A stretch of 64,000 bases of DNA from Levilactobacillus lanxiensis (GTDB lineage Bacteria > Bacillota > Bacilli > Lactobacillales > Lactobacillaceae), in the NCBI RefSeq assembly GCF_016861655.1, contig NZ_BOLN01000009.1:1-64000 (forward strand). Direction: 5' to 3'. Below, piece by piece: positions 7,007-29,210 of the stretch. Numbering within the stretch: position 1 is the first letter of the stretch; every line of letters begins with the position of its first letter. Position numbers and translations under genes: made by a program. The notes under the pieces were generated by a model, which worked only from the letters and a program-made list of their open reading frames with translations, ran no database searches and had not been told where the DNA came from.

Positions 7007-7237
7007 TGAAAAATGGCAATGTGTGGCGCATTTCGTTCCCGACGGTGAGCTCAAGGCGCCCTGCTATGGGGTCGGTTCCAGCCTGAGAGGCGGGCTTCCA
7101 CCTCAACTTTGAGCCCAAGAGCGGTCTCAAAGGTTGTCCCGCGGGCTAGGTCGGGCAAGAACCCCGGCCAAGGCCGCCGACACAGCTGGGCGCCTTGGCT
7201 CACCTCTGGTCACTCCGGCAACGTCCGCATTTTCTCA
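7007..7237 (-). repeat. Palindromic repeat R1 (family A)
   Basis: The conserved core 7034-7213 reads on the minus strand from GTGACCAGAGG to GGGAACG. It contains the A-family hairpins and the CTGTGTCGG/CCACAGC-type stem, here more degenerate than in other copies. Flanking arms TGAAAAATG (7007) and its near complement ending at 7237 pair with one mismatch. The gap from here to R2 holds no gene. Confidence 0.7.
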
Positions 7238-7426
7238 GACTGGTAGCTGACAGAAGACGGTCACAGGTATTCCTGAATAAATGGTTGACTAGTGTTCTTA
7301 GGCTGTCAAAAGATTATTCAAAACTTTTTGTTGCAAATACAGCATAATTGATTTACACTAATTTCATCGATTCGATAGTTATTAGTTCACTTAGGCAGGT
7401 TGCCATGAGTGAGATTGGGACTAGGT

Positions 7427-7635
7427 AATCAATGTCAGTGACCAGAGGTGGGCCAAACTGACCAGCTGTGTCGGTGGTCTTAGCTGAGGGGGTTACTCAG
7501 CTTAGAGCACGGGACGTGCTTGGAAACTCGCGGGTCTTGCGAGGTTTCAAGCCGAGCTGGCAGACCGCTTCTCAGGCTGGCAGCGTTCCCCACAGCAGGG
7601 CGGTTTGAGCCCACCGCCGGGAACGGCAATTGATT
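7427..7635 (+). repeat. Palindromic repeat R2 (family A)
   Basis: The core 7438-7625 starts GTGACCAGAGGTGGGCC and ends GGGAACG. Hairpins are CTTAGCTGAG/CTCAGCTTAG and CTTGGAAACTCG/CGAGGTTTCAAG, followed by the AGACCGC..CTCAGGCTGG module and CCCCACAGC. Flanking arms AATCAAT (7427-7433) and ATTGATT (7629-7635) are complementary. The copy lies just upstream of the MarR gene, so it may be in its untranslated leader. Confidence 0.8.
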
Positions 7636-7653
7636 TGGCGAGGAGGGGAAGAA

Positions 7654-8106
7654 TTGACTGAAATTTTACGACCGCTGGGCAACATTTCGCGGGCCTTGGA
7701 TTCCATTGCGAATCATGAATTTCAACGGGTGCAGCTCACTAAAGGCCAGTATCTCTACCTGGCCCGGGTGGCCGAGCATCCCGGCATTATTTTAGAGCGA
7801 CTGGCCGAGCTGTTGCGGGTCGACCGCACAACGGCGGCCAGGGCCGTGCAGAAGCTGACGACTGCGGGTGTCTTGGAAAAGCGACCGGACGATACGAACC
7901 GCAAGATCAAGCGACTGTTCGTCACGGCGCAGGGTGAGCAGGTGTACCCGCTAGTCAAACGCGAAAATGACTACTCGAACAACCGCGCCCTCCAGGGATT
8001 CACCCCGGCCGAGGCGGCACAGTTAGCGAGCTACTTGGAACGCGTGGACGCGAACGTCGTGCAGGATTGGGTCGCCGTTAAACAAGGACAAACCAGAACT
8101 TATTAA
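7654..8106 (+). CDS. MarR family transcriptional regulator
   Basis: About 150 residues with the winged helix of MarR proteins: LTKGQYLYLARVAEHPGI, then LAELLRVDRTTAARAVQKL as recognition region and the wing RPDDTNRKIKRLFVT. TTG 7654 is chosen because AGGAGGGG lies at 7641-7648; an upstream TTG at 7630 lacks a site. It heads a likely four-gene unit with a GNAT enzyme, an unknown protein and an MFS exporter, a common set for a repressor of an efflux or detoxification operon. The ligand is unknown. Confidence 0.85.
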   Translation: MTEILRPLGNISRALDSIANHEFQRVQLTKGQYLYLARVAEHPGIILERLAELLRVDRTTAARAVQKLTTAGVLEKRPDDTNRKIKRLFVTAQGEQVYPLVKRENDYSNNRALQGFTPAEAAQLASYLERVDANVVQDWVAVKQGQTRTY

Positions 8107-8120
8107 AAGGAGCAAAAACA

Positions 8121-8639
8121 ATGACAGGAAAAATTAAATTATGCACCCCAGATGACGTAAAGGCTTTACAGGCGGTTAGTCGGGCAACATTTGCCGACAC
8201 GTTTGGCGCGGTGAACACACCGGCAGATTTGGCCAAGTATTTGGACGACAGTTACAACGAAGCCCAACTCCTACAGGAAATGCAACAACCGACGAGTCAA
8301 TTTTCCTTCATCCTAGTTGATGATCAGGTGGCGGGGTACGTGAAATTAAACTGGGGTCCTACGCAGTCCGAAGAGCAGGGCGATGGCAACCTGGAAATTG
8401 AACGGATCTACATCCTGCCTGAATTCAAACGTCAGGGACTGGGGAAGCAGCTGTACCAGTACGCCGTGGAAAAAGCGCAGGCGTTGCAGTTAGCTGCCAT
8501 TTGGTTGGGCGTTTGGGAAAATAATACGTCGGCCCAAAAGTTTTACGAGGCGATGGGCTTCAAGGAAATTGGCGACCACGTCTTCCAGCTAGGAACCTCA
8601 AAACAACGTGATTTAATTTTACAAAAGACGCTGGTATAA
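8121..8639 (+). CDS. GNAT family N-acetyltransferase
   Basis: A 172-residue acetyltransferase. Motif A is IERIYILPEFKRQGLGKQLY, with Q-G-L-G at the pyrophosphate loop, followed by AIWLGVWENNTSAQKFYEAMGF, the motif B region of PaiA/RimI-like proteins. AAAGGAG precedes the ATG, 14 bp after the MarR gene. Being co-directional with MarR and MFS genes suggests a role in modifying a toxic amine or polyamine, but the substrate is not shown by the sequence. Confidence 0.85.
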   Translation: MTGKIKLCTPDDVKALQAVSRATFADTFGAVNTPADLAKYLDDSYNEAQLLQEMQQPTSQFSFILVDDQVAGYVKLNWGPTQSEEQGDGNLEIERIYILPEFKRQGLGKQLYQYAVEKAQALQLAAIWLGVWENNTSAQKFYEAMGFKEIGDHVFQLGTSKQRDLILQKTLV

Positions 8640-8682
8640 TGAGGCTTACGTAAATAAAAAATGACGCATTGAGGAGACTGAC

Positions 8683-9090
8683 ATGAAAGATAATATTCAA
8701 ATGGGCGACGCTGATTTCGCCAAGATGATGCTGGTTCTGAAGGAGCCCGTGACGCAAGCCAACCACAAGGAATTCAAGTTCCTCGATGGTACCGAGACCG
8801 GTGAGATGCAAGAGATTGCCCCCGGTATCTGGGCGATGCCTGCCTACATGCAGGAAGATGATGACTTTACGATGTTCTTCCTGACGACGCAGATTGAATC
8901 GGGCGAGACCGTCATGGCCTTTGCGACCGGTGAAACGGCTGACGGCGATTTCCGATTGAGCCAACCCCTGGTGACGGGTGCCGGGCTGAACGTCTTGAAC
9001 GAACAGCAACCCAACCGGGCCAAACGTGTCTTAAAATTTTTAAATGATATTTCTAAAGCGGATGAGGGTAACTGGCGGATGGTCGATTAG
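8683..9090 (+). CDS. Hypothetical acidic protein
   Basis: A 135-residue soluble protein without signal peptide or membrane helix. It is rich in Asp, Glu, Met and Phe, with a segment EIAPGIWAMPAYMQEDDDFTMFFLTT. I recognise no family. A GAGGAG site precedes ATG 8683, and it lies between the GNAT and MFS genes of the same strand with 43 and 29-bp gaps, so co-expression is likely. Confidence 0.65.
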   Translation: MKDNIQMGDADFAKMMLVLKEPVTQANHKEFKFLDGTETGEMQEIAPGIWAMPAYMQEDDDFTMFFLTTQIESGETVMAFATGETADGDFRLSQPLVTGAGLNVLNEQQPNRAKRVLKFLNDISKADEGNWRMVD

Positions 9091-9119
9091 TCTTGGCGTG
9101 ACAAGTTGGAGGTGGTCGC

Positions 9120-10310
9120 ATGGAACAGACGACCAAGGCATTTAACCTGCCCCTCCTCCTCGCACCCTTTGTCTCGCGACTAGGTAGCACGCTGTACTTA
9201 TTCGGTTTAAATTGGTTCGTGGTGCAGGCCACGGGCAACGCGGCTCTACTGGGGATTATTCAGGCCATCGGTGGGGTCGTTTTATTTTTCGGCGATTTAC
9301 TCTGTGGGGTGGTCGTGGATAACTTTAATCGTAAACGCATCGTGGTCAGCGCGGAGTTGCTCAGCGTGATTGGTTGTTTGGCCTGTGCCTGGTGGCTGGA
9401 TCCCCAGCACATCACGGCGGGACCGTTGATTACCTTGACCGTGATTTTGGACGTGGGGCTGGCGTTTAGTTTGCCAGCGGCCAAGGCCATGATTCCGGAA
9501 CTGATTACCTTGGCGGGGCGGCAACGGTTCAACGCCGTCAGCAACACCCTGATTGATCTGGCCGACATCTGTGCGCCACTGATTGGTGGGGCGCTGCTGG
9601 CCATGCACTGGCTCGACCTGCGGGGATTCTTGGTGCTCAACGGCTCGTCCTTTCTCCTGTCGTTTCTCTTTTACCTCAGCATTCACTACCACCAGCCGGT
9701 CAAGGATGATTCCCGGTTGGGCGTGAAAGAAAGCCTGCTGACGGGCTGGCGCTACGTGTGGCAGCGGCCCGGCTTGGTGGAAACCATCGTGTTAGGCGGA
9801 CTGATCAACGTGCTCTATGCGGCGGTACGGTTAGTCTTGCCGTACAACGTCAATCACCTGTACGGAGGCGATTCGGCACGGTACAGTTACCTACTAATGA
9901 TTTTGGCGGTCGGCGGCATCCTGGGTGGACTGCGGTTGACCCTGGACCACCGGCCACCCAAGCGGCAGCAAAACTATGCCGACCTGATATTGGCCGCCGT
10001 GGCCCTGTTGGTTGCTGGGGTGTGGGCCAATTACTGGGTCCTGCTGGCGGTCAGCGGCGTCTTCGGTTTTTGCTATTCATGCTTTGAAATTCGGGCAATC
10101 ACCATCACCCAAGATTTAACGGCACCGGAGTTCTTGGGCCGGATGTTTGGCATTCTTTTCCTGGCCATCGATGCCTTTCAGCCCGTGGGGAGCTTTGTCT
10201 TCGGTTTCGTCACGGACTGGCTGGCAAATGGCACGCTAATTGTCATTGGCCTGCTGCTCTTAATGGGTTTGGGGCTTATCAATCGGTGGTATCAACGCTT
10301 AATTGGCTAA
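9120..10310 (+). CDS. MFS exporter (macrolide-efflux/EntS-like)
   Basis: A 396-residue transporter with about 12 hydrophobic segments. The N-terminus LLLAPFVSRLGSTLYLFGLNWFV and the loop CGVVVDNFNRKRIVV (D-x-x-x-R-K-R, motif A) fit the MFS_3 group of drug and siderophore exporters. DLTAPEFLGRMFGI in the second half is also usual for that group. It starts after TTGGAGGTGG. As the last gene of the MarR-headed unit, it probably exports a toxic compound under MarR control. Confidence 0.8.
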   Translation: MEQTTKAFNLPLLLAPFVSRLGSTLYLFGLNWFVVQATGNAALLGIIQAIGGVVLFFGDLLCGVVVDNFNRKRIVVSAELLSVIGCLACAWWLDPQHITAGPLITLTVILDVGLAFSLPAAKAMIPELITLAGRQRFNAVSNTLIDLADICAPLIGGALLAMHWLDLRGFLVLNGSSFLLSFLFYLSIHYHQPVKDDSRLGVKESLLTGWRYVWQRPGLVETIVLGGLINVLYAAVRLVLPYNVNHLYGGDSARYSYLLMILAVGGILGGLRLTLDHRPPKRQQNYADLILAAVALLVAGVWANYWVLLAVSGVFGFCYSCFEIRAITITQDLTAPEFLGRMFGILFLAIDAFQPVGSFVFGFVTDWLANGTLIVIGLLLLMGLGLINRWYQRLIG

Positions 10311-10332
10311 AAACGATAGTTAAGACAATGCG

Positions 10333-10361
10333 TTGACCTGGCTTGACGGACTCTCTATACT
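10333..10361 (+). promoter_or_regulatory. Promoter of uracil permease gene
   Basis: TTGACC at 10333-10338, 17-bp spacer, TATACT at 10356-10361. Confidence 0.75.
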
Positions 10362-10373
10362 AGGTACTAATCT

Positions 10374-10492
10374 ATTCCTTTAACGTTGTCCCGTGAGGCA
10401 GTGAAGGGTGCACGTTCTGGCAGTTGCCGGGCTAAGTCTAGGCTAAAAGGGTGGGCACATCGTTTCCTTACGGAGGCGATGTGCCTTTTTTT
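10374..10492 (+). promoter_or_regulatory. PyrR-dependent attenuator leader
   Basis: Just after the promoter, TTTAACGTTGTCCCGTGAGG (from 10379) resembles the PyrR RNA-binding hairpin of pyrimidine genes in Lactobacillales. Downstream, a GGCACATCG/CGATGTGCC stem with a T7 run (10454-10492) is a terminator. By family knowledge, UMP-bound PyrR stabilises the anti-antiterminator and stops transcription, so uptake is shut when pyrimidines are plentiful. Confidence 0.75.
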
Positions 10493-10520
10493 CTATCTCA
10501 TAACTTGGAGGTCTTTGTGC

Positions 10521-11792
10521 ATGAAAGAACCAACGCGTTACCGCAATCCGGATGCCTTGATTGATATTTGGGAGCGGCCCAGTTGGGGTCAGTGGTTTGG
10601 TCTCTCGCTTCAGCATTTATTTTCCATGTTTGGGTCCACGGTGCTGGTCCCGATTCTCGTCGGGTTAAATCCCGGCATTGCGCTGTTTAGTTCCGGTGTC
10701 GGCACCCTGATGTACATCTTGATCACGCGGGGGAAAATTCCTGCGTACATGGGGTCCAGTTTTTCCTTCATCGTGCCCATGGTGGCGCTGATGAAGACGA
10801 CCGGGTATCCTGGGATTGCCCAGGGGACGCTGGCGGTCGGGGCCGTTTACCTGATTGTGGCCCTGGTGGTCGCGATGATTGGGTCGGACTGGATCAACAA
10901 GGCCCTGCCGCCAATCGTGGTCGGGCCGATGGTCATGGTGATTGGGCTGTCACTAGCAAGTAGCGCCGCCCAGAAGGCCACAGTCGACAGCGCCGGTGTG
11001 TATCACTGGCAGTATTTTGCGGTGGCGATGGCCACGCTACTGCTGACGATTGGTTTTAATCTCTACTTACGCGGCTTCCTGTCGCTGGTGCCAATCCTGC
11101 TGGGCATCATCGCGGGCTATCTGATTGCCACGGCGGTCGGCCTGGTCAATTTCAAACCGGTCATGCAGGCGGCCTGGTTCCAGCTGCCCAGCTTTGAGGT
11201 CCCGCTACTGAGCTATCCACTGCACTTCTACTGGGGAGCCGTGATCAGTTTGGCACCGATTGCGTTCGTGACCATGACCGAGCACATCGGGCACATTACC
11301 GTGCTAAATGAACTGACGCACCGCAACTTCTTCGAAGACCCCGGCCTGCAGCACACGTTAGCGGGGGATGGCCTCGCCTCGATTATTGCCAGCTTTGTTG
11401 GGGGCCCACCCGTGACCTCTTACGGGGAAAACGTGGGTGTCCTGGCCATCACGCGGGTTCACAGTGTCTACGTCCTGATTGGGGCCGCGGTCTTCGCCGT
11501 CATCTTTAGCTTTGTCGGCAAGCTGAGCGCGCTGATTGAAAGTATCCCGAACCCCGTGATTGGTGGGATTAGCTTCCTACTATTCGGGGTGATTGCCTCC
11601 AGCGGGATGCGGATTCTGATTGAGAAGCACGTCGATTTCAATCGCAAACGCAACCTGATGATTGCCTCGGCCATTCTGGTCATTGGAATCGGCAACGCCT
11701 ACCTGAAGATTGGGCAGTATGAGTTTTCGGGGCTGGCAGTGGCGGCGGTGCTGGGTATCGTCTTAAACCTGGTCCTCCCAGACAACGATTAG
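10521..11792 (+). CDS. pyrP: Uracil permease (NCS2 family)
   Basis: A 423-residue nucleobase:cation symporter of the UraA/PyrP group. The start MKEPTRYRNPDALIDIWERP and the LSLQHLFSMFGSTVLVPILVG segment are typical. TMTEHIGHIT is the substrate-binding helix 8 region of UraA, and GDGLASIIASFVGGPPVTSYGENVGV is the helix 10 motif. The in-frame extension back to 10386 runs through the attenuator, so ATG 10521 with TTGGAGG is chosen. Regulation by PyrR fits uracil as substrate. Its last codons form the left arm of repeat R3. Confidence 0.92.
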   Translation: MKEPTRYRNPDALIDIWERPSWGQWFGLSLQHLFSMFGSTVLVPILVGLNPGIALFSSGVGTLMYILITRGKIPAYMGSSFSFIVPMVALMKTTGYPGIAQGTLAVGAVYLIVALVVAMIGSDWINKALPPIVVGPMVMVIGLSLASSAAQKATVDSAGVYHWQYFAVAMATLLLTIGFNLYLRGFLSLVPILLGIIAGYLIATAVGLVNFKPVMQAAWFQLPSFEVPLLSYPLHFYWGAVISLAPIAFVTMTEHIGHITVLNELTHRNFFEDPGLQHTLAGDGLASIIASFVGGPPVTSYGENVGVLAITRVHSVYVLIGAAVFAVIFSFVGKLSALIESIPNPVIGGISFLLFGVIASSGMRILIEKHVDFNRKRNLMIASAILVIGIGNAYLKIGQYEFSGLAVAAVLGIVLNLVLPDND

Positions 11793-12037
11793 TAACCATA
11801 CAGTCATGACATTTCCGCTCCCGACGGCGGGTTCAAGGTGCCCTGCTGTGGGGCCCACCTCCAGCCAAAGCAGGCGGTCTTCCGGTTCGTCTTGAAACCT
11901 CGTTGAGAATCACGAGTTTCCAAGGACGGCCCATGCCCTAGGCTAGGAAAGGACCCTAGCCAATGCCATCGACACAGCTGGGCACCTTGACCCGCCTCTG
12001 GTCGCTCAGACATCATGCTTGAGTTACTAATCGTTGT
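11782..12037 (-). repeat. Palindromic repeat R3 (family A)
   Basis: Core about 11815-12004 on the minus strand. The outer arms ACAACGATTAGTAAC (11782-11796) and GTTACTAATCGTTGT (12023-12037) are a perfect 15-bp inverted repeat. The left arm covers the final sense codon and stop codon of the uracil permease gene, so the right arm is an inverted copy of that gene end. Confidence 0.8.
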
Positions 12038-12130
12038 GGAATTTAGCTATAGTTGTCTGGTCTTCGTTCCAAATAGTGTGGGTACAGTTGCGCTTGTGCT
12101 TCAGAAATTCTGCCAATGATGATAAAGTGT

Positions 12131-12184
12131 AAACAAAGAGCGACCACAATTCTCCATGTACGGAGGGCTGTGGTCGCTTTGTTT
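12131..12184. terminator. Bidirectional terminator between R3 and R4
   Basis: AAACAAAG plus AGCGACCACA pairs with TGTGGTCGCT plus TTGTTT around an inner TCTCC/GGAGG-like stem. It suits convergent pyrP and azlD. Confidence 0.8.
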
Positions 12185-12214
12185 GGTTGTTAGATTAAGC
12201 ATGTACTGCGCTCA

Positions 12215-12452
12215 GTTGAAATGGTGTAGCAGATTGTCAGTGACCAGAGGTGGGTCAAGGTTGACAGCTGTGTCGATGGTCTTACCTGAGTGGTTCTCTC
12301 AGGTTAGAGCATGGGACGCCCTTGAAGACTGTGGTTTTCAGGCTTCAAGGCGAGGCGGAAGACCGCCCCTCAGGCTGGAGCCGTTCCCCACAGCAGGCAA
12401 CCTTGAACCCACCGTCGGGAACGGTCTACAACAATCTATTACAGCCATTTCA
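12215..12452 (+). repeat. Palindromic repeat R4 (family A)
   Basis: The core 12240-12423 starts GTGACCAGAGG. The third hairpin is ACCTGAG/CTCAGGT. Long arms TGAAATGGTGTAGCAGATTG (from 12217) and ACAATCTATTACAGCCATTT (from 12431) pair over about 21 bp with few mismatches. The right arm runs into the stop codon of azlD. Confidence 0.8.
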
Positions 12453-12782
12453 CCCAATAGAGAAGTAGCGGAGGACGGCCATGGCCATGATGCCCACGAC
12501 GACCACCATCAGGAGACTCTTGGTCAGCACGCCGGCTAGCGTGGCGGGGATGGCTGCCAGGCAGTTAGCGATGTTGAGCGTGGCTAAATGTCCCGCGTGG
12601 GCGACGAATAGACTCTCACAGCACAGCGCCGTCATGATGGTGATGGGCACGAAGGAGAGAAAGCTGATCAGCCACGCTGGCATGTTCAGTGATTTGACAA
12701 AGGCAAACGGGAGCACCCGTGACAGGACGGTGATGGCCCCGCAACCCAGGATGACCCAGAGCTCAGTTAGACTTATCGACAT
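12450..12782 (-). CDS. azlD: AzlD family branched-chain amino acid export subunit
   Basis: A 110-residue membrane protein with about four hydrophobic segments, typical AzlD size. The segment TVLSRVLPFAFVKSLNMPAW is characteristic of the family. Together with AzlC it exports branched-chain amino acids; the specificity here is inferred. Its start codon overlaps the last 10 bp of azlC, showing translational coupling. Its 3' end lies inside the right arm of repeat R4. Confidence 0.85.
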   Translation of the reverse strand: MSISLTELWVILGCGAITVLSRVLPFAFVKSLNMPAWLISFLSFVPITIMTALCCESLFVAHAGHLATLNIANCLAAIPATLAGVLTKSLLMVVVVGIMAMAVLRYFSIG

Positions 12783-13477
12783 TTTTTCAACTCCATTCCA
12801 AATAGACAGCCGGCGACGGTCGCCACTAGCAGGGCAAAGTTTTGACTCATCACGCCAATCAGGAAGTAATAGGCCAGCGCGACGAAGGCCATGACGCTCA
12901 ATTGCAGGGTCATTCCCAGATGTTTGTCACTAATCAGTTGTAAGTAGACCAGGCCGATGAACATCGCCGTCAGGGCGAAATCAAAGCCAAAACGGGTGGG
13001 GTCCGCAATCAGGCCGCCGAGGATGGCGCCGACGACGGTCGATAGGCCCCAGACTAAGTAGGCGATCACGTTGGCCGCGGACTGCCAAGCAAAGCTGAGT
13101 TTGCCGTTGGTCTTATTTTGCTTGTTCATGGCCAGGGCAAAGGTTTCGTCGGTCACCAGCGTCCCAATCAAGAGGTTACGCGTGAGGGACTCGTGTTTGA
13201 AATACTGCGCCAAACTGGTACTCATCAGAATCATCCGCGAGTTTACCAGGAAGGTCGAAATAAAAATAGCAGATAGCGGATCATGCAGCAGGAGCATGCT
13301 GGTGATAATGAATTGCGCGGAACCGGCGTAGACGACAAACGATAGCCCGGCGACCACTAACAAACTCAGGTGACTGGTGTGGGCGACGATGCCAAAAGCT
13401 AGGCCTACCCCGATATAGCCAAAGACGGTGGGGAGGACGTCACGAACCCCGGTCCGAAAGGTGAGTGAAGGACTCAT
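12773..13477 (-). CDS. azlC: AzlC family branched-chain amino acid exporter
   Basis: A 234-residue membrane permease. FRTGVRDVLPTVFGYIGVGL and SFVVYAGSAQFIITSMLL are AzlC signatures, and FLVNSRMILMSTSLA is the NxR segment conserved in the family. It forms the exporter with the overlapping azlD. The small MerR-like gene is divergent from it about 190 bp away and could be its regulator. Confidence 0.88.
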   Translation of the reverse strand: MSPSLTFRTGVRDVLPTVFGYIGVGLAFGIVAHTSHLSLLVVAGLSFVVYAGSAQFIITSMLLLHDPLSAIFISTFLVNSRMILMSTSLAQYFKHESLTRNLLIGTLVTDETFALAMNKQNKTNGKLSFAWQSAANVIAYLVWGLSTVVGAILGGLIADPTRFGFDFALTAMFIGLVYLQLISDKHLGMTLQLSVMAFVALAYYFLIGVMSQNFALLVATVAGCLFGMELKKCR

Positions 13478-13597
13478 AAGAGACTTCCTTTCTGTTCTCT
13501 AATTAGTTTTTAATTTCAAGTTTAGCGCTAACTTATGGCTGCGTAAACCCGTAATTTATTCGTAAGATTGTCATGTAAATTTTTTGAACTGAAAAGG

Positions 13598-13626
13598 TTG
13601 CATTTCGGTAAAGGTGGTTGTATGAT
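13598..13626 (+). promoter_or_regulatory. Promoter of small MerR-like gene
   Basis: TTGCAT at 13598-13603, 17-bp spacer, TATGAT at 13621-13626. Confidence 0.7.
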
Positions 13627-13664
13627 ACTCTCATTGATGTTGAATGAAAGTGAGGGTATGGGCG

Positions 13665-13904: not shown

Positions 13905-13942
13905 CAAGTCATTAAGGTAATGAATCGGTAAAATGTACCACT

Positions 13943-13986
13943 AAGCAGCTCCGCGGGTCCAGCCCGTGAGCTGCTTTTCTTTTTGC
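13943..13986 (+). terminator. Terminator of MerR-like gene
   Basis: AAGCAGCTC pairs with GAGCTGCTT, followed by TTCTTTTT. Its 3' arm also forms the left arm of repeat R5. Confidence 0.85.
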
Positions 13987-14215
13987 CTTGGTGTTTGAAC
14001 TGCACTCCCGGCGGTGGTCCTTTGCTCCCCACGCTGTGGGGGACGACTGCGGCCTGAGAAGCGGTCCTCCGTCTCGCCTGGAAACCTCGAAAGACCCGAG
14101 TTTCCCAGGTCGCCCCATGGCCTAACCCGGGTGAGAAACCCCGGCTAAGGCCATCGACACAGCGAAGTCCGCAAAACCACCTCTGGTCGCTCACACAGGC
14201 AAAGGAAAACAGCTC
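13968..14215 (-). repeat. Palindromic repeat R5 (family A)
   Basis: Core about 14002-14194 on the minus strand, containing CTGAGAAGCGGTC and CACAGCG modules. The outer arms GAGCTGCTTTTCTTTTTGCC (13968) and GGCAAAGGAAAACAGCTC (to 14215) pair with small gaps. The left arm is the terminator of the preceding gene. Confidence 0.7.
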
Positions 14216-14228
14216 GTTCTTTTCATCT

Positions 14229-14488: not shown

Positions 14489-14655
14489 GGGCGGGCAAAA
14501 TAAACTCAGCCGTGGGAATTATCTTAGTGGTGGGCTTTGCCACTTAGATAATTGGTGTCTTTGAAACTCGGTTCTCAGAGGTTCAAAGCAAGTCTGAAGA
14601 CCGCACTTTGGCTTCAGGCGTCCGCCCACAGCGTCACGGTTTATTTTGCCCGCCC
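14489..14655 (-). repeat. Palindromic repeat R7 (family B)
   Basis: Perfect 17-bp arms GGGCGGGCAAAATAAAC (14489-14505) and its complement (14639-14655). On the minus strand the core runs from CGTGACGCTGTGGGC to CCCACGGCTGA. The third hairpin is AATTATCTTAGTGG/CCACTTAGATAATT. Sequence outside the arms (GAGCCGTGAGG, GGTAAGGCGC) is shared with R8. Confidence 0.85.
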
Positions 14656-14708
14656 GGTAAGGCGCTGGCGAGAGACCATGTTGCCAACTATCATCAATTA
14701 CCGGATGC

Positions 14709-19332: not shown

Positions 19333-19499
19333 GGGGTCCGGAAAAATGGGCTAAGCCGTGGGAGTCGTCTAACCGGCTAGGCCGGTTAGACGACTGGTAC
19401 CTTTGAGACGCGCCCTTGGCGGCTCAAAGTAAGGCTGAAGACCGCCTCCCAGGCTTCAACCGTCCGCCCACAGCGTCACGGCCCATTTTTTCGGACCCC
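19333..19499 (-). repeat. Palindromic repeat R9 (family B)
   Basis: Arms GGGGTCCGGAAAAATGGGC (19333-19351) and GCCCATTTTTTCGGACCCC (19481-19499) match at 18 of 19 pairs. The third hairpin AGTCGTCTAACCGGC/GCCGGTTAGACGACT is nearly perfect. The copy lies upstream of the CDF gene. Confidence 0.88.
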
Positions 19500-22136: not shown

Positions 22137-22152
22137 GTGAGGAGGAAACGGC

Positions 22153-22608: not shown

Positions 22609-22712
22609 AAGTGTTAATACTGGGGAGAAGCCTAGAAATTTAGGTGTGGGGTGGTATACTCATTGCTAGGGGTTTTTCCCAGAATCGGGTATGACGAAAG
22701 GAATAAATAATC

Positions 22713-23381
22713 ATGATGCTATTTAATAAGGACCGCGATCGGCCGTGGAAGTTTACGCTTGCCACCATACTGTTCTTGGTCGTGGCCGTTTACATAAAGG
22801 CGCAAAACGCCTACGTGGATTTTCTGGATTCATCGATTGTCGATGTGATTCAGAAGAACCAACCGGGGTGGAAAACGCTGCTGTATCGGGGAGTAACGAG
22901 TCTAGCGGAACCGAAATTGGACATTATTTGGGTGTTGATTCTGGCGTTTCTGCTGTGGGGCTTCAAGTTCAAAATTCCTGCACTCTGGTGTCTGGCGACA
23001 CTGGCCGGGGGGGATGTCATTGCCAGCCTGGTTAAGAGCCTGGTCAAACGTGCGCGGCCATCGGGTCACCTGGCCATCGATGACGGCTACAGTTTCCCCA
23101 GTGGTCACGTGTTCGGCACCTTCCTGCTGATTGCGATGATCTGGGTCATCCTGATGCCGATGATCATGGCAGCCTGGAAAGCATGGCTGCTCCGAATCGT
23201 CCTCATTGTGTGGATGGTGCTGGTCATGATCTCCCGGGTGTACTTAAACGCCCACTTCCCAACGGATACGATTGGGGCAGTCCTGCTGGCTTACCTGTGG
23301 TTACAGGTGGCAGAGGGGCTGTACATTCGCTTAGCGCCGATGATGCAACACTGGCCTTTGCTGAAGAAATCTGAAATTTAA
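22713..23381 (+). CDS. PAP2 superfamily phosphatase
   Basis: A 222-residue membrane phosphatase with about six helices. Motif C1 is KSLVKRARP, C2 is SFPSGHVFG, and C3 is SRVYLNAHFPTD, with the catalytic His pair. Such proteins dephosphorylate lipid phosphates, for example undecaprenyl pyrophosphate or phosphatidylglycerophosphate; the substrate is not determined here. An extended -10 (TGGTATACT, 22652-22660) and GAAAGGA site precede it. Confidence 0.9.
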   Translation: MMLFNKDRDRPWKFTLATILFLVVAVYIKAQNAYVDFLDSSIVDVIQKNQPGWKTLLYRGVTSLAEPKLDIIWVLILAFLLWGFKFKIPALWCLATLAGGDVIASLVKSLVKRARPSGHLAIDDGYSFPSGHVFGTFLLIAMIWVILMPMIMAAWKAWLLRIVLIVWMVLVMISRVYLNAHFPTDTIGAVLLAYLWLQVAEGLYIRLAPMMQHWPLLKKSEI

Positions 23382-23384
23382 TGA

Positions 23385-23426
23385 GAACGTGCCAACCACT
23401 TTTTCCAGTGGCTGACACGTTTTTTC
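23385..23426 (+). terminator. Terminator after PAP2 gene
   Basis: AACGTGCCAACCACT pairs with AGTGGCTGACACGTT, followed by TTTTT. Confidence 0.85.
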
Positions 23427-23459
23427 TATGGGCTAAATTTTGTTGTTGGATTCGCCTCC

Positions 23460-23624
23460 GGGATGGTGAAAATATACCGTGACGCTGTGGGCGCGCGTCT
23501 GGAGCCAAAGGGCGGTCTCCAGACTTACTTTGAGCCGCTGAGAAGCGCGTCTCAAAGATAGCAGTTCCCTAAGCGGCAAAGCCACTAAGGGAACTCCCAC
23601 GGCTGAGTATATTTTCACCATCCC
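23460..23624 (+). repeat. Palindromic repeat R10 (family B)
   Basis: Perfect 18-bp arms GGGATGGTGAAAATATAC (23460-23477) and complement (23607-23624). Inner CGCTGTGGG/CCCACGGC. Hairpins are GTCTGGAG/CTCCAGAC, CTTTGAG/CTCAAAG and AGTTCCCT/AGGGAACT. Their sequences differ from R8 yet remain paired. Confidence 0.9.
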
Positions 23625-23807
23625 TGCGGCTGACACTTGTTTAGCCCGTAGAAACGGTGTTGTGGTGAGTAGTATAAATTTTCTGATATTTCTATTGCAG
23701 TGGTCAGCACGCTGGTTCCGGCCAGTGTTGTGGTGAATATTGATTTAGCGTTTAAGACTCTATCATCGAATAATAGTTGTCGTTGAAGAGGGAAGAGGCA
23801 AAAGAAA

Positions 23808-23850
23808 ACACCTCCACGTAAAAAAATGCGTGAAGGCGTCTGAAAAAAGT
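23808..23850 (-). terminator. Probable terminator for the hydrolase gene
   Basis: On the minus strand ACGCCTTCACGCA and ACGTGGAGGTGT pair and a T-rich tail follows. It lies downstream of the hydrolase gene and beyond R11. Confidence 0.5.
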
Positions 23851-23922
23851 CAATTTGTTAAATTAATGTACCCACAGTAAAACACGAAATGGACCGAATT
23901 GGGCTAACACTGCGTCAGTCGT

Positions 23923-24170
23923 CCGGTCAGTGAAAAGTTTCGCACCACGTGAGTGACCAGAGGCGGATCAAGACGGGCAGCTGTGTCGGTGGTCTTAACT
24001 GAGTGATTTTCTCAGTTTAGAGCACGGGACGACCTTGGAGACTCGCGATTTTTAGCGAGGCTTCAAGGCGAGGCCCCAGACCGCTCTTCAGGCTGGTGTC
24101 GTTCCCCACAGCAGACCGTCTTGAATCCGCCGCCGGGAACGGACTGAGCGGGACCATTTTCACCGCCCGG
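23923..24170 (+). repeat. Palindromic repeat R11 (family A)
   Basis: Core 23953-24141 from GTGACCAGAGG to GGGAACG. The third hairpin is AACTGAG/CTCAGTT. Arms CCGGTCAGTGAAAA (23923-23936) and TTTTCACCGCCCGG (24157-24170) pair at 11 of 14. The outer right end GCCCGGCAAGGCG resembles the outer end of family B copies, linking the two families. Confidence 0.8.
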
Positions 24171-24193
24171 CAAGGCGAATGAACGCGGAAGTG

Positions 24194-24988
24194 CTAGTCC
24201 AGTTCGTGGAGCCATTCTTCGGCTAGGTCGACCCAGTGCGCCACGTGTGGCAGCGCCGTCCCCGGCTTCCAAGCCGTGACGCGGTTGGCTAACGCTAAGC
24301 CGTGGGGGCCTTGATGGAAGACGTGAAGCTCCGTGTCCACGTTGGCCGCGATTGATGCTTGGGCGTAGTCGAAGGCGTTTTGCACGGGCACCAGGGGATC
24401 CTCTGCGGTGACCCAGATGAAGGTGGCGACGTTACGACTGTTGACGAGCTTATCCGCCGCGATGCTGGTCGGATCATCCGTCCATTTTGCCAGCATGTCT
24501 GCATCCGTGGGGTAGCCCGCTGCCGGCGTGATGACCGGGTAGCCGAGAATGACGGCCCGCGGTTTAATTTCGTAGGGCGTCGTGCCAGCTAATTTGTTAA
24601 AGGCCTCGTCGTGCCACAGGTCGTTGAACAGCGCGGTAATGTGACCGCCGACGGAGAAGCCCGCCACGAAGATATGATCCGTGTCAATCTGCCAGTTGTT
24701 GGCATTGCGCCGCAGCAGGGCCATCCCCTTAGCCAGTTCCACGACGGGCGTAGGCAACAGCGGCGTCTTTTCACCGACAAACGTGTAGCGCAGGAAGAAG
24801 GCCTGGTAGCCACGCGCTGACCAGGCTAACGCCAAGTCCTCGGCCTGTTGTTCAGGGATGTGGGTGTAGTTGCCGCCGGGAACGATGATGATGGCGGGAT
24901 AGGTGCCCGTGTCTTCAGCTGGCTCGCGCAGATACCCTTGTAAGTAAGCCTTCGACGTGGGCGCGAGTGGCAAAGTGATTGTTTTCAA
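24194..24988 (-). CDS. Alpha/beta hydrolase (esterase/xylan-esterase-like)
   Basis: A 264-residue hydrolase. VPGGNY at residues 36-41 is the oxyanion-hole turn, GFSVGG at 110-115 is the nucleophile elbow with Ser112, an acidic residue is in TAEDPLVPV, and the His is in HQGPHGLALA. No signal peptide is seen, so it acts in the cytoplasm. The sequence resembles the BD-FAE/esterase-lipase group that cleaves small acyl or acetyl esters; the substrate is unknown. The start follows an AGGTTT-type site. Confidence 0.85.
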   Translation of the reverse strand: MKTITLPLAPTSKAYLQGYLREPAEDTGTYPAIIIVPGGNYTHIPEQQAEDLALAWSARGYQAFFLRYTFVGEKTPLLPTPVVELAKGMALLRRNANNWQIDTDHIFVAGFSVGGHITALFNDLWHDEAFNKLAGTTPYEIKPRAVILGYPVITPAAGYPTDADMLAKWTDDPTSIAADKLVNSRNVATFIWVTAEDPLVPVQNAFDYAQASIAANVDTELHVFHQGPHGLALANRVTAWKPGTALPHVAHWVDLAEEWLHELD

Positions 24989-25207
24989 TTGCGAAACCTC
25001 CCAAAATAAGTCATGATAAGATTAATTGTTTCGTGAACGCGACCGCTCACAGATTTGTGGACGGCTCCTGTCAACGAAACGGGGTTCGGTCGCCGATGGA
25101 CTGGCCGAACGCATTCACCTTAAAGTATACCGCATTCACCAACGGGTTAGGTAGTGACCTGACAAGTTGCGTGGTGCGGGGATGATGAGAAATGAGGGGG
25201 TCAGGTG

Positions 25208-25753
25208 ATGGAGAAAATGAGTGAGACGGCGCGGGTGCGGTTACGGCCGCTGACCGAAAGTGACTTCCCGGGGTACCAACGCCTGTTGACGTTGCCGGCT
25301 GTGGCCGCGGCGAACGGGTCACCCGCCGATGCGGACCCGGAACAGGTCAAACGGTGGCTGGCGGCTGACCGCCAAAGTCCCTTTGCGTTTACCATAGAAG
25401 ACAAGGCGACACGTCGCTTCATGGGGACGATTTTATTTTATCAGCACACCGGGGATGCGGGTGAGCCAAGCACAGGCGAGTATGACCTGGGGTATTTTCT
25501 GGACCCCATCGACTGGGGACAGGGCATCATGCCCGAGGCCTTGGACGGCAGTCTGCAACTGGTCCGGCAGGCGAGTCAGCAGCCACAGACCGTCTGGGCA
25601 ACCTGCTATCTCAGCAACCATCGGTCGGCCCGGGTCTTAGAAAAGTTAGGCTTTCAGCTGGTCTTGGACCATTTTGTCGGGCCCAGCATCACGGGTGAAC
25701 CCGTGGCCCCACAGGCTTTGTATCGGTTGACGCTGCAACCAGTAGAAAAATAA
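25208..25753 (+). CDS. RimJ/RimL-type GNAT acetyltransferase
   Basis: A 181-residue protein starting MEKMSETARVRLRPLTESDF, the RimJ/RimL N-terminus. The acetyl-CoA region is YDLGYFLDPIDWGQGIMPEAL, and YLSNHRSARVLEKLGF is the conserved C-terminal turn. It acetylates a protein N-terminus or small amine; the acceptor is unknown. GAGGGGG precedes ATG 25208. Confidence 0.85.
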   Translation: MEKMSETARVRLRPLTESDFPGYQRLLTLPAVAAANGSPADADPEQVKRWLAADRQSPFAFTIEDKATRRFMGTILFYQHTGDAGEPSTGEYDLGYFLDPIDWGQGIMPEALDGSLQLVRQASQQPQTVWATCYLSNHRSARVLEKLGFQLVLDHFVGPSITGEPVAPQALYRLTLQPVEK

Positions 25754-25776
25754 TGCATTCTAATCGAAATTTCATC

Positions 25777-25805
25777 TTGCAATATTTGGTAGGGATGCGT
25801 ATACT
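25777..25805 (+). promoter_or_regulatory. Promoter of lysP leader
   Basis: TTGCAA at 25777-25782, 17-bp spacer, TATACT at 25800-25805. Confidence 0.75.
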
Positions 25806-25817
25806 ACAGAGTATCGA

Positions 25818-26060
25818 ATAGAAGAGGTGCGACCAACAAGAGTCGCTTTCCTGAGATGGGTCAACATCGCAGATGGAAAGCAAAAGGGGCGGTCGCCGAA
25901 ACCTGCGCGTGAGGACATAGCGTGTAGGTTGGGTCCTGGTTGAATAAATCAGGGACTGTCGCAGCCGAATAGGGGTTGCGGGGCGCTTTCAACGATATTG
26001 ACTTGGAATAATGAATTTTCCAATCTCTTTCGCGGGCTTTTATTGCGAAGGAGATTTTTT
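25818..26060 (+). promoter_or_regulatory. Lysine riboswitch (L box) with terminator
   Basis: GAAGAGGTGCG at 25821, an AAGAGTCGC element, the GGAAAGC..AAGGGGCGGTCGCCGAA stretch and a distal TGTCGCAGCC match the conserved core of lysine riboswitches. A terminator AATCTCTTTCGC/GCGAAGGAGATT with T6 lies at 26022-26060. Lysine binding is expected to favour termination, so permease expression rises when lysine is scarce. Confidence 0.85.
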
Positions 26061-26115
26061 AGTTCACTGGGTCGTTTCGAGGAAGTCCTTCTAAAATAAG
26101 AAGGAGGAAACATTT

Positions 26116-27627
26116 ATGGAACAAAGTATGACAAACGCAACAACCAGCGGGGCCTCTGATCAGGTCAAGCGGGGCCTCAAGACACGTCACGTCTCAATGA
26201 TCGCGTTAGGTGGCTGTATTGGGACCGGGTTATTCGTCGCCAGTGGGTCGGCTATTTCAACGGCCGGGCCTGGTGGTGCGCTGGTTGCTTACGTTGCCAT
26301 GGGTCTGATGGTGTACTTCCTGATGACCAGCTTGGGTGAAATGGCCACGAACATGCCAATCTCTGGCTCGTTCGCTGCTTACTCAGCCAAGTACGTTGAT
26401 CCAGCCTTAGGGTTTGCCATGGGCTGGAACTACTGGTTCAACTGGGCCATTACGGTTGCCGTTGATATTTCAACCGCCGCACTGGTCATGAAGTTTTGGT
26501 TACCCGGGGTCCCAAGTTGGATCTGGAGTGCCATTGCATTAGGCATCGTCTTCCTGATCAACGCCTTGGCCGTTCAAGCCTTTGGGGAAACGGAATTCTG
26601 GATGTCCTTGATCAAGGTTGTCACCATCTTCGTCTTCTTAGCCGTTGGGTTAATGACCATCGTGGGAATCATGGGTGGTCACGCCACTGGCTTGGAAAAC
26701 TTCACGTACAAGAAGGCCCCATTCGTTGGGGGCTTCCCCGCAATTCTGAGTGTCTTCGTGGTTGCTGGGTTCTCGTTCCAAGGAACTGAATTGGTTGGGA
26801 TTACCGCTGGTGAATCTGAAGATCCAGCACACAGTGTTCCCAAGGCCATCAATTCCGTATTCTGGCGGATTATCTTATTCTACATTTTAGCTATTTTTGT
26901 GATTGCCGCCGTTTTACCTTACACCAGTAAGGATCTGTTAGGTTCTTCCGCAACCGACATCGCCATCAGTCCTTTCACGTTGGTCTTCCAGCGTGCCGGC
27001 TTGGCCGCTGCCGCTAGTGTGATGAACGCCGTTATCTTAACGTCCGTGATTTCCGCTGCAAACTCTGGGATGTACGCTTCCACACGGATGTTGTACTCCC
27101 TGTCTAAGGAAGGTTACGCACCACAATTGTTCGAAAAGACTGGGAAGAACGGGATTCCTTATCCTGCCTTGTTTGCCACGACCATTGTCGCTGCGTTGAC
27201 CTTTATCAGTAGTATTGCGGGTCCACAAATCTACATGTGGCTGGTTGCTGCTAGTGGGCTGACCGGGTTCATCGCTTGGTTCGGGATTGCGCTGTCACAT
27301 TACCGGTTCCGTCGGGCATTCATCAAGCAAGGACACAAGCTGTCCGAACTGAGCTATCACGCAAAGTGGTTCCCAATCGGACCAATCCTGGCGTTGATTC
27401 TCTGTGTGGCTGTGATTGTTGGGCAAGACCCACAATCCTTCTTCTCAGGTAACTGGGAACAAGTCTTGGTCACCTACATCAGTGTGCCATTGGTCTTAGT
27501 CCTTTACATCGGCTACAAGATCAAGAAGCACACCAAGTTGATTCCGCTGAGCGAAGTTGACGTTGCCCCTGTTCATAAGGAAGGCACGTTAAAAGAAGTT
27601 AAGGCGGATGCTACTTCAAACGATTAA
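26116..27627 (+). CDS. lysP: Lysine-specific permease (APC family)
   Basis: A 503-residue amino acid permease with 12 helices. The N-terminus RGLKTRHVSMIALGGCIGTG and the next segment LFVASGSAISTAGPGG are the APC/AAT signature, and FQGTELVGITAGESEDPAHS is conserved in LysP and related permeases. AAGGAGG precedes ATG 26116. The lysine riboswitch upstream makes lysine the most likely substrate. A terminator ends this single-gene unit. Confidence 0.93.
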   Translation: MEQSMTNATTSGASDQVKRGLKTRHVSMIALGGCIGTGLFVASGSAISTAGPGGALVAYVAMGLMVYFLMTSLGEMATNMPISGSFAAYSAKYVDPALGFAMGWNYWFNWAITVAVDISTAALVMKFWLPGVPSWIWSAIALGIVFLINALAVQAFGETEFWMSLIKVVTIFVFLAVGLMTIVGIMGGHATGLENFTYKKAPFVGGFPAILSVFVVAGFSFQGTELVGITAGESEDPAHSVPKAINSVFWRIILFYILAIFVIAAVLPYTSKDLLGSSATDIAISPFTLVFQRAGLAAAASVMNAVILTSVISAANSGMYASTRMLYSLSKEGYAPQLFEKTGKNGIPYPALFATTIVAALTFISSIAGPQIYMWLVAASGLTGFIAWFGIALSHYRFRRAFIKQGHKLSELSYHAKWFPIGPILALILCVAVIVGQDPQSFFSGNWEQVLVTYISVPLVLVLYIGYKIKKHTKLIPLSEVDVAPVHKEGTLKEVKADATSND

Positions 27628-27670
27628 ACTAGAAATTAGTGTGGGCACACGAAATTTTTAAATAAATCTG

Positions 27671-27714
27671 AACGGCGTCTAGTCGGCGAATAGTCGGTCT
27701 AGGCGCCGTTTTTA
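27671..27714 (+). terminator. Terminator of lysP
   Basis: AACGGCGTCTAGTCGGC pairs with GTCGGTCTAGGCGCCGTT, followed by TTTT. Confidence 0.85.
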
Positions 27715-27748
27715 ACGGATTGGCTAGAGAGAAAATGGCCACGACATA

Positions 27749-27777
27749 TTGTCTTTTACCCATGAGGTTGGTACAAT
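27749..27777 (+). promoter_or_regulatory. Promoter of deoxynucleoside kinase gene
   Basis: TTGTCT at 27749-27754, 17-bp spacer, TACAAT at 27772-27777. Confidence 0.7.
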
Positions 27778-27842
27778 ATGTGGTGTTGAAATTTTGGCCG
27801 GACGAAAAAAGCCGGCGCGTCGTTATTTAAAGGAGAGATTGC

Positions 27843-28475
27843 ATGCTTGTATTATCGGGAACTATCGGAGCCGGCAAAACGAGTTTAACCACTTTGTTAG
27901 CCGAACACTTAAACAAACCAGCATTTTATGAATCAGTGGATGACAACAAAATCTTGCCACTGTTCTACCAGAACCCCCAGAAGTATGCTTTCTTGCTTCA
28001 AATTTACTTCTTAAACAAGCGTTTGGACAACATCAAGGCTGCCAACGCCGATGATGAAAGTGTTTTGGACCGCTCAATCTTTGAGGATTCCTTACTCTTC
28101 CATTTGAACGCCGACTTAGGCCGGGCCACCAGCACGGAAGTCGACATCTACGATTCCCTGTTGGCCAACATGATGCAAGAATTACCTGACGCGACACACA
28201 AGAAGAACCCAGACTTACTGATTCACATCAACATCTCCTTTGAAACGATGCTGGAACGGATCAAGAAGCGCGGCCGGTCATACGAACAAATCGACCATGA
28301 CCCCAGCCTCTACAAATACTACCAAGAACTCGATCAACGTTACGTTGACTGGTACAACGCCTACGACAAGTCACCTAAGATGCAAATTGACGGCGACAAG
28401 CTGGACTTCGTGGAAGACCCAGCTGCGCGTGACCAAGTCTTACACTTGATTGACGAAAAAATTGCTTCACTGTAA
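27843..28475 (+). CDS. Deoxynucleoside kinase (dGK/dAK type)
   Basis: A 210-residue kinase. The P-loop GTIGAGKT lies at residues 6-13, the LDRSIFED (DRS) motif near residues 75-82 matches the deoxyadenosine/deoxyguanosine kinases of lactobacilli, and RIKKRGRSYEQ is the lid. It phosphorylates purine deoxynucleosides for salvage in the cytoplasm. Which of the two kinase partners it represents cannot be decided. AAAGGAGAG precedes the start. Confidence 0.88.
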   Translation: MLVLSGTIGAGKTSLTTLLAEHLNKPAFYESVDDNKILPLFYQNPQKYAFLLQIYFLNKRLDNIKAANADDESVLDRSIFEDSLLFHLNADLGRATSTEVDIYDSLLANMMQELPDATHKKNPDLLIHINISFETMLERIKKRGRSYEQIDHDPSLYKYYQELDQRYVDWYNAYDKSPKMQIDGDKLDFVEDPAARDQVLHLIDEKIASL

Positions 28476-28493
28476 AACATTGCTACAAAAATA

Positions 28494-28531
28494 AAGTGGT
28501 TCCGCGCCCCCGGGCACGGAGCCACTTTTGC
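28494..28531 (+). terminator. Terminator of deoxynucleoside kinase gene
   Basis: AAGTGGTTCCGCGC pairs with GCACGGAGCCACTT, followed by TTG. Confidence 0.8.
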
Positions 28532-28551
28532 TTAGCGCTACTTCCACCTCC

Positions 28552-28718
28552 AGTCACTCAAATGGGCTGCCCTATGGGGAACGCTTGAAGCCTGAGAAGC
28601 GGTCTTCAAGCTCGCCTTTAAGCCGCAAAAATCGCGTCTTAAAGGTCGTCCGGTGTTCTAAGGCCGAGAAGTCCGCTCGGTCTAAGAACACCGACACAGG
28701 GCAGTCCATTTGGTGACT
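28552..28718 (+). repeat. Palindromic repeat R12 (hybrid of A and B)
   Basis: Arms AGTCACTCAAATGG and CTGCCCT (28552-28573) pair with AGGGCAGTCCATTTGGTGAC (from 28698) with one bulge and one mismatch. Hairpins are CTTGAAG/CTTCAAG, CTTTAAG/CTTAAAG and GGTGTTCT/AGAACACC. It ends with the CACCGACACAG of family A, so it is an intermediate form. Confidence 0.82.
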
Positions 28719-28969
28719 TCCGGTTCCAGTAGCACTAAGCAAAAGTGGCCGGCTCTTTGATTGTATAGTGGGGGATGACTTTGCCGTTCGCTAAATGGCT
28801 ACAACATTGCGGTAGGTCCCTGAGCGAATCTGAGGCTGCGTCAGTTACTTTAATGACCTGCTAGTGTTGTTGGAGGGGTAAAGCAGGATATACGTCAAAT
28901 AACACGCACATGAGGGGACGTTGACCACTACCACTGTCAGCCAGAGTGAGACAGGGCGGCTAGGACCAC

Positions 28970-29210
28970 GCCAATTGAAAATGGTATGGCCAGTCTAAGT
29001 GACCAGAGGCGGGCCAAGGCGAGCAGCTGTGTCGGTGTTCTTAACTGAGGGGGCTTCTCAGTTTAGAACACGGGACAACCTTTGAGACCGCTCCCCAGGC
29101 TCAAAGTTGAGGTGGAAGCCCGTCCCTCAGGCTGGAACCGGCCCCACAGCAGGGAACCTTGAGCCCGCCGCCGGGAACGAACAACTAGCCAAGCCCCATT
29201 TTCAATTGGC
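28970..29210 (+). repeat. Palindromic repeat R13 (family A)
   Basis: Core 28999-29179 from GTGACCAGAGGCGGGCC to GGGAACG. Perfect 15-bp arms GCCAATTGAAAATGG (28970-28984) and complement (29196-29210) lie about 15 bp outside it. The right arm directly abuts the serS promoter. The gap 28719-28969 shows no other feature. Confidence 0.85.

What the first reader, a model, noticed from the sequence alone, without database searches (positions are those of the whole stretch)
7007..29210. Thirteen copies of a structured palindromic repeat family in 22 kb
R1-R13 lie at 7007, 7427, 11782, 12215, 13968, 14229, 14489, 18019, 19333, 23460, 23923, 28552 and 28970. All are intergenic or touch only gene ends, in both orientations, and none occurs from 29211 to the window end. 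Each folds as an outer paired stem, then a GTGGG or CTGTG-type stem, then three hairpins. Family B reads CGTGACGCTGTGGGC to CCCACGGCTGA. Family A reads GTGACCAGAGG to GGGAACG and is related to B in reverse, with R12 intermediate. No ORF is inside. It may be a non-autonomous mobile element, a structured RNA family or a chromosome-organising site.
Basis: seen in the sequence. Interest (0 to 1): 0.85.

Follow-up and report, generated by a model that had tools for sequence, protein, structure and literature searches.

The report
Structured repeats that bracket bacterial genes
Lactic acid bacteria of the brevis group carry hundreds of copies of a hairpin-rich DNA repeat that nearly always points the same end at the nearest gene; our searches turned up no description of it, and it looks like an old mobile element that spread as a folded strand.

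Summary
In detail: 12 full copies plus one remnant (R6) lie at 7-29 kb and none beyond. Families A and B are homologous on the same strand, not reversed. The genome is an unnamed Levilactobacillus near L. mulengensis. A sample of 864 kb holds 207 copies, about 700 by extrapolation. The fold (closing stem plus three hairpins) has strong covariation within the genome and across genera; G-U versus A-C counts say that one strand folds, whichever way the neighbouring gene runs. In one intergenic gap neighbours are -+ (41), ++ (8), -- (7), never +-; three other genera agree (12 of 12 -+). Copies persist at the same places in related species, yet cores swap, delete and appear anew. Matches occur in 42 of 201 Lactobacillaceae genomes; distant copies outside the family resemble part of the S. 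pyogenes small RNA SSRC8. No Rfam family reaches threshold; no plasmid or phage match was found. Best reading: an undescribed BOX-like, non-autonomous repeat spread through its folded + strand. The cause of the facing rule is open.

The parts
7063..7188 (-). R1 core (A type), beyond the terminator-like hairpin after the GNAT ORF ending at 6956
   Evidence: CM R1, 105.8 bits; GNAT by Pfam; hairpin by eye; L. mulengensis has only a partial match here (26.8 bits)
7463..7596 (+). R2 core (A type), 3' side towards the MarR-family ORF starting at 7630
   Evidence: 131.6 bits; MarR by Pfam; the L. wangkuiensis copy has the window's 5' part and the L. mulengensis 3' part
11845..11980 (-). R3 core (A type), 3' side close to the stop codon of the xanthine/uracil permease ORF (ends 11792)
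   Evidence: 109.1 bits; Pfam Xan_ur_permease. ACAACGATTAGTAAC at the ORF end recurs inverted on the far side of the copy (sequence)
12265..12394 (+). R4 core (A type), 3' side towards the stop end of the minus-strand AzlD ORF 12450-12782
   Evidence: 128.5 bits; AzlD by Pfam; 95.8% identical to an L. mulengensis copy at another site
14033..14165 (-). R5 core (A type)
   Evidence: 122.9 bits
14252..14374 (-). R6, probable decayed copy beside R5
   Evidence: 13.9 bits, E 0.26; similar remnant in L. wangkuiensis
14507..14632 (+). R7 core (B type)
   Evidence: 101 bits
18042..18163 (-). R8 core (B type); its 3' tail begins just after a terminator-like T-run
   Evidence: 98.7 bits; T-run by eye
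19353..19474 (+). R9 core (B type)
   Evidence: 97.9 bits
23484..23605 (-). R10 core (B type) within long arms (about 23440-23670)
   Evidence: 101.7 bits; same arms around an A-type core in L. wangkuiensis
23978..24112 (+). R11 core (A type), 3' side towards the stop codon of the minus-strand BD-FAE-family ORF 24194-24988
   Evidence: 135.7 bits; BD-FAE by Pfam; an element matches at this gene-end position in 10 of 31 named Levilactobacillus loci
28571..28702 (-). R12 core (A/B intermediate)
   Evidence: 119.4 bits; arms 28521-28557 / 28713-28749 are 81% complementary
29024..29150 (+). R13 core (A type), upstream of the seryl-tRNA synthetase ORF starting at 29495
   Evidence: 114.3 bits; Pfam

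Best explanation
These are copies of one high-copy family of interspersed structured repeats (full form about 250-330 bp: a base such as GCC-GNA-GG .. CC-GNA-GGC, a stem that differs from site to site, then a conserved core with a CTGTG/CACAG stem and three hairpins). Most likely it is a non-autonomous, BOX-like mobile repeat. Its active form is the folded PLUS strand (RNA or single-stranded DNA), which an unidentified host or element protein copies into new sites. The 3' side ends up next to an ORF boundary. Old copies stay for a long time and evolve by recombination and conversion between copies. Shown: family, fold, strand bias, copy density, facing rule, turnover. Inferred: mobility in trans, nature of the intermediate, and that polar insertion or selection on neighbouring transcripts makes the facing rule.
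For: 207 copies in 864 kb; at least 150 in the genome (capped). Covariation in 102 copies from Levilactobacillus and other genera: 91.8% of cells paired against 68.3% shuffled, 37 of 40 pairs with double changes, 858 double-change cells against 249; slid controls at most 160. In pairs at least 70% Watson-Crick, G-U 97 against A-C 32 on the plus strand; the same bias next to gene 3' ends (52:18) and 5' ends (28:10), so the folding strand does not depend on the gene's direction. Turnover: of 34 intergenic gaps aligned in three species about 93% identical, 19 have the same element string and 15 differ: added copies, deletion between tandem copies, A/B core swaps inside conserved arms, and one copy of opposite orientation. 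Facing rule: 166 of 189 nearer a gene on the 3' side, 78 of 88 single copies; same-gap neighbours -+ 41, ++ 8, -- 7, +- 0. L. mulengensis 56 of 62 and L. wangkuiensis 49 of 50, no +- neighbour (largely the same loci as the own genome, where 40 of 48 obey in that region). Five genomes of three other genera: 33 of 37, neighbours 12 of 12 -+.
Against: No autonomous partner or target-site duplication was found, and no transposase search was run. No match in the plasmid or phage collections in six blastn searches with four queries (A and the L202 relative in both, B and an L. brevis CD0817 copy in plasmids only); odd for an active mobile element, though blastn may miss diverged copies. The cores are not AT-rich as MITEs often are (GC 0.47-0.68). 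The 86 bases on the 5' side of one L. mulengensis insertion have no other match better than E 0.03 in three genomes, so no donor was seen. The facing rule follows from no mobility model known to me.
Confidence: 0.55

Rival explanations
1. Host-used gene-boundary element acting in transcripts: plus-strand fold in 5' leaders, minus-strand hairpin after stop codons (mRNA processing, stabilisation or termination). Selection on the transcript keeps the orientation.
For: The 3' side nearly abuts ORFs: median gap beyond the arm 5 nt to stop codons (n 95) and 70 nt to start codons (n 77), against 177 (n 46) and 243 nt (n 48) on the 5' side (examples). Only 14 of the 95 stop-facing gaps hold a separate terminator by our test. 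At one gene end, species without the element go from stop codon straight to a terminator-like hairpin (by eye). The facing rule and -+ pairs recur across genera.
Against: The G-U bias favours the plus strand equally next to 3' ends, where the transcript would carry the minus strand. Presence varies between near species. Promoter-like sites are densest between the element's 3' side and the gene (17 sites, 1.14/kb, against 0.36-0.48/kb elsewhere), so some copies lie upstream of the promoter, outside the transcript.
Confidence: 0.22
2. Trans-acting structured RNA family dispersed as many RNA genes.
For: One-strand fold with conserved mismatches across genera. Distant relatives match, on the same strand, part (model 145-210 of 281) of Rfam SSRC8_2 below threshold (36 bits, gathering 72); SSRC8 was seen on Northern blots in S. 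pyogenes (PMC3675131, passages read).
Against: No sense promoter enrichment on the 5' side (0.36/kb), and hundreds of copies.
Confidence: 0.1
3. Chromosome-organising or protein-binding DNA site that brackets gene blocks as inverted pairs.
For: Strict -+ rule within gaps; no plasmid match.
Against: Strong single-strand fold constraint and variable positions; no partner protein known; no consistent replication-strand bias across six blocks.
Confidence: 0.05
4. Passive hairpins kept palindromic by quasi-palindrome correction during replication, with no function of the fold.
For: Outer arms differ from site to site yet stay complementary (own arms median score 8.35, arms swapped between copies 2.8; 30 of 86 exceed the 95% control).
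Against: Mismatches such as an internal A-G recur across genera, which correction would erase, and the G-U excess on one strand is not expected.
Confidence: 0.05

Closest known systems
BOX elements of Streptococcus pneumoniae and relatives (PMC3049150; passages and section 6 read)
   Same: Intergenic, many copies, strongly folded, modular, slow turnover; that paper judges them parasitic. Short similar end motifs (AGCCGCAGG and GG(C/T)AAGGCG) at the base of the stem (compared by eye).
   Different: No tandem boxB-like modules; three-hairpin core; BOX end profiles have no match at element ends in the sample, and the reverse profiles reach BOX ends only at E 12 to 20; CM R2 finds nothing in 12 BOX loci.
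SSRC8 small RNA of Streptococcus pyogenes (Rfam RF02616)
   Same: Two hairpins matched on the same strand by distant relatives (36 bits, E 1.5e-7). That relative is itself multicopy in genome G343 (40 full or partial matches, the scoring cap).
   Different: Half the gathering score; only model 145-210 of 281; the Levilactobacillus copies in the window do not match it.
REP/REPIN elements with RAYT transposases (recalled)
   Same: High-copy extragenic palindromes, often in inverted pairs.
   Different: REP units are far smaller and simpler (recalled); here each unit is about 250 bp with three hairpins; RAYT not searched.
Integron attC sites (recalled)
   Same: One-strand folded sites that sit right after stop codons.
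   Different: Here both ends of genes carry the element, in inverted orientation; the GTTAAAC/GTTTAAC ends stand in the opposite order and were not seen by eye in the other-genus copies printed.

Membership tests
BOX elements | boxA, tandem boxB and boxC modules | tested here: not met
   No significant profile match of ends in either direction; no R2 match in 12 BOX-bearing loci. boxB and boxC were not modelled separately
BOX elements | High-copy intergenic repeat with extensive secondary structure | tested here: met
MITE | Terminal inverted repeats | tested here: inconclusive
   Many Levilactobacillus copies end GGGTTAAAC .. GTTTAACCC-like, but outer arms vary by site
MITE | Target-site duplication | tested here: inconclusive
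   None seen by eye in the few copies with an apparently empty site; sample too small
MITE | Transposase of a parent element | not tested
   No transposase search was run
Any Rfam 15 family | Gathering score | tested here: not met
   No family reaches it at the copies scanned: window and loci L202, L203, L204, L206, L207; SSRC8_2 sub-threshold in L202 and L203 only
REPIN/RAYT | Short REP palindromes plus a RAYT gene | not tested
   Unit size does not fit; RAYT not searched
Integron attC | RYYYAAC .. GTTRRRY ends and an integron integrase | not tested
   End order differs by eye; integrase not searched

The most novel reading that the evidence does not exclude
A family-wide gene-bracketing element: hundreds of structured elements per genome, turned so that the 3' side meets the coding region, form an inverted pair around transcription units and act there, as a strand-specific RNA or single-stranded DNA structure, to insulate or process each unit. 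It would be shared from Lactobacillaceae to streptococcus-like relatives.
Probability: 0.2. Interest if true: 0.88.

Novelty: new variant of a known kind. Interest (0 to 1): 0.66.

Why it matters
Cores alone make up 3.0% of the sampled sequence, more with arms, so this is a very dense structured repeat family. It carries a strong polarity rule relative to coding regions that neither simple transposition nor simple transcription effects predict. The rule makes the old question of whether such repeats are parasites or devices testable, since one can invert, delete or move single copies. It also affects annotation, strain typing and expression work in food lactobacilli.

Tried and rejected
Own-promoter RNA gene: no sense promoter enrichment on the 5' side. 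Transduced donor DNA beside the L. mulengensis copy: not found elsewhere. Extra helix GGGAC/GTCCC closing the last two hairpins: pairs well but shows little covariation beyond expectation. Replication-strand bias: none consistent. BOX homology by ends: not significant. Internal ORF or autonomous version: none seen among 207 matches, but a copy split by a long insert could escape the model. Paper searches listed nothing on this repeat; I saw the listings only, and most subscription journals are not in the library. Not tested: partner transposase, RNA-seq, strain-level empty sites.

Rows dropped before counts: one search kept 90 of 120 nhmmer rows (score at least 60, nearly full length, no duplicates; all rows of loci L001, L031 and L034 left out). 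One search used 203 of 207 (score at least 45). One search counted 189 of 203 (1 inside a called ORF, 13 without a flanking ORF in the stretch). A3 holds 150 of 207. Searches used 189 and 188 copies (score at least 60, away from stretch ends). One search used 122 of 150 (25 far from a gene, 3 unplaced). One search used 86 copies and 117, those with recognisable ends. One search placed 37 of 38 copies. One search folded 120 of 189. One search covered 41 loci that I chose, leaving out loci without hits and second copies of the nearest relatives. ORFs were called by longest-ORF rules, and ORFs under 200 aa over elements were discarded, so the 'inside a gene' count is biased low. The G000 stretches were chosen by me, not at random. 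Many copies are related, so the counts are not probabilities.
Full report
CHECK. A covariance model of the 131-position core (R1), built from 90 own-genome cores that include these 12, finds 12 of them in the window at E 2.1e-21 or better and nothing up to E 1 after 29211; the thirteenth, R6, is a remnant (E 0.26). The repeats were also found without a model. A and B are subfamilies of one element in the same orientation.

WHERE IT IS. The window is contig C9 of a 3.03 Mb genome. The ORF at 24194-24988 is 98% identical to proteins of Levilactobacillus mulengensis and L. wangkuiensis; contig lengths identify G016 and G029 as these two. R1 matches 33 of 35 genomes of the genus, own included, and 42 of 201 genomes in 9 of 40 genera of the family at E 1e-5. 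Model R2, built from copies of several genera, matches 14 of 295 genomes of the order, 2 of them outside the family with one match each, and 1 of 299 of the class, the own genome. The wide searches used strict filters and caps, so these are lower bounds.

COPY NUMBER. A sample of 864 kb (window plus 40 stretches) holds 207 matches at E 0.01, which extrapolates to about 726 in the genome.

FOLD. In 90 own-genome copies, 30 of 40 pairs show double changes and 454 cells have them, against 138 in shuffles. Across genera, 91.8% of cells pair, 37 of 40 pairs have double changes, and slid controls fall to 47% or less (the alignment is fitted to the model). Conserved features include unpaired positions inside stems. 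On the plus strand G-U outnumbers A-C 97 to 32 in mostly Watson-Crick pairs; over all pairs of the own-genome set the figures are closer, 144 to 109, in part because one position is C-A in B copies. RNA folding energy is lower for the plus strand in 100 of 120 copies folded (not independent of the first measure). The bias is the same next to gene 3' ends (52:18) and 5' ends (28:10). Some other genera carry a compact form that lacks one hairpin.

ARMS. Outside the core the two arms are complementary but differ between sites: own arms score 8.35 (median), arms swapped between copies 2.8. Full copies end with AGCCG(C/T)..GG and CC..GG..GGCG, and often with GGGTTAAAC and GTTTAACCC-like tails. In R3 the end of the neighbouring ORF recurs inverted on the far side, and an L. 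mulengensis copy has arms partly made of local sequence (read by eye). This suggests, but does not prove, that arms are copied from the site.

THE FACING RULE. Of 189 placed copies, 166 are nearer to a gene on their 3' side; the gene shows its 3' end in 105 cases and its 5' end in 84. Of 88 copies alone in their gap, 78 obey. Among 56 neighbours within one gap, 41 are -+, 8 ++, 7 -- and none +-; with independent orientations the absence of +- would have a chance of about 2e-7. With a gene between, neighbours are mixed: ++ 41, +- 41, -+ 16, -- 10, so strict bracketing of every block is not seen. The gap beyond the arm is 5 nt to a stop codon and 70 nt to a start codon (medians), against 177 and 243 nt on the 5' side. 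The rule repeats in L. mulengensis (56 of 62) and L. wangkuiensis (49 of 50), mostly at loci shared with the own genome, and in five genomes of three other genera (33 of 37; neighbours 12 of 12 -+). In the window the order is - + - + - (-) + - + - + - +.

TURNOVER. At the gene end next to R11, 10 of 31 named species carry a matching element in the same place; species without it show stop codon then a terminator-like hairpin, and at least four (L117, L119, L127, L131) show fragments or truncated copies by eye. Of 34 gaps aligned in three species, 19 have the same element string and 15 differ. Seen there: an A core inside arms that carry a B core elsewhere, deletion between tandem copies, 5' and 3' parts of different origin, extra copies, and one gap where one species has a copy of opposite orientation. 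One extra L. mulengensis copy is 95.8% identical to R4 at another site.

PROMOTERS. Promoter-like sites are densest between the 3' side and the gene, pointing at the gene (17 sites, 1.14/kb), and not enriched on the 5' side (19 sites, 0.36/kb). Some copies thus lie just outside a transcription unit, others in leaders.

LINKS. Rfam has no match at the copies scanned. The distant copies in G343 and G464 match SSRC8_2 below threshold, on the same strand as the element; SSRC8 was verified by Northern blot and its ends mapped in S. pyogenes (PMC3675131, passages read). G343 holds 40 matches (the scoring cap) to its copy, and G464 also carries BOX-primer sites. BOX elements are the closest known kind (PMC3049150, passages and section 6); end motifs look alike by eye, but no profile test supports homology. 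No plasmid or phage match was found in six searches.

JUDGEMENT. The family is real, large and, as far as these searches show, undescribed. A parasitic, BOX-like origin with a folded plus-strand intermediate explains fold, strand bias, spread and turnover. It does not by itself explain why the 3' side so regularly meets coding regions. That rule is the surprising part and the reason to follow up.

Noticed in passing
L202:1339-1449, L202:461-573, L203:1630-1742: Distant multicopy relatives outside Lactobacillaceae match Rfam SSRC8_2 sub-threshold; the L203 copy lies just upstream of an ORF (1783-2274) that reads like purE (by eye).
   Followed up: partly
L182-L187, L204, L206, L207, L209: Compact variants with a core of about 90-110 nt in other genera; in L207 three tandem minus-strand copies (6779, 6947, 7115) precede a plus copy (7350).
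   Followed up: partly
window 25814-25996: Lysine riboswitch upstream of an amino-acid permease ORF (26116-27627).
   Followed up: no
window 10373-10491: PyrR-binding-site-like leader just below the Rfam gathering score (50.9 of 54) at the start of the xanthine/uracil permease ORF.
   Followed up: no
window 29300-29480: T-box-like leader before the seryl-tRNA synthetase ORF, downstream of R13 (by eye; one search reported no T-box there).
   Followed up: no
window 31225-32032: Cluster of eight tRNA genes.
   Followed up: no
window 23606-23920: The spacer between the divergent copies R10 and R11 aligns poorly with L. wangkuiensis although the genomes are about 93% identical (by eye).
   Followed up: no
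L118, L122, L123, L126, L129-L135: No match at E 0.01 in the stretch around the orthologous gene in 11 of 31 named loci, including L. brevis ATCC 14869.
   Followed up: no
L216, L217 and other BOX loci: BOX repeats begin near TAGCCGCAGG and contain CGGCAAGGCG near the other end, resembling the base of the Levilactobacillus element.
   Followed up: yes
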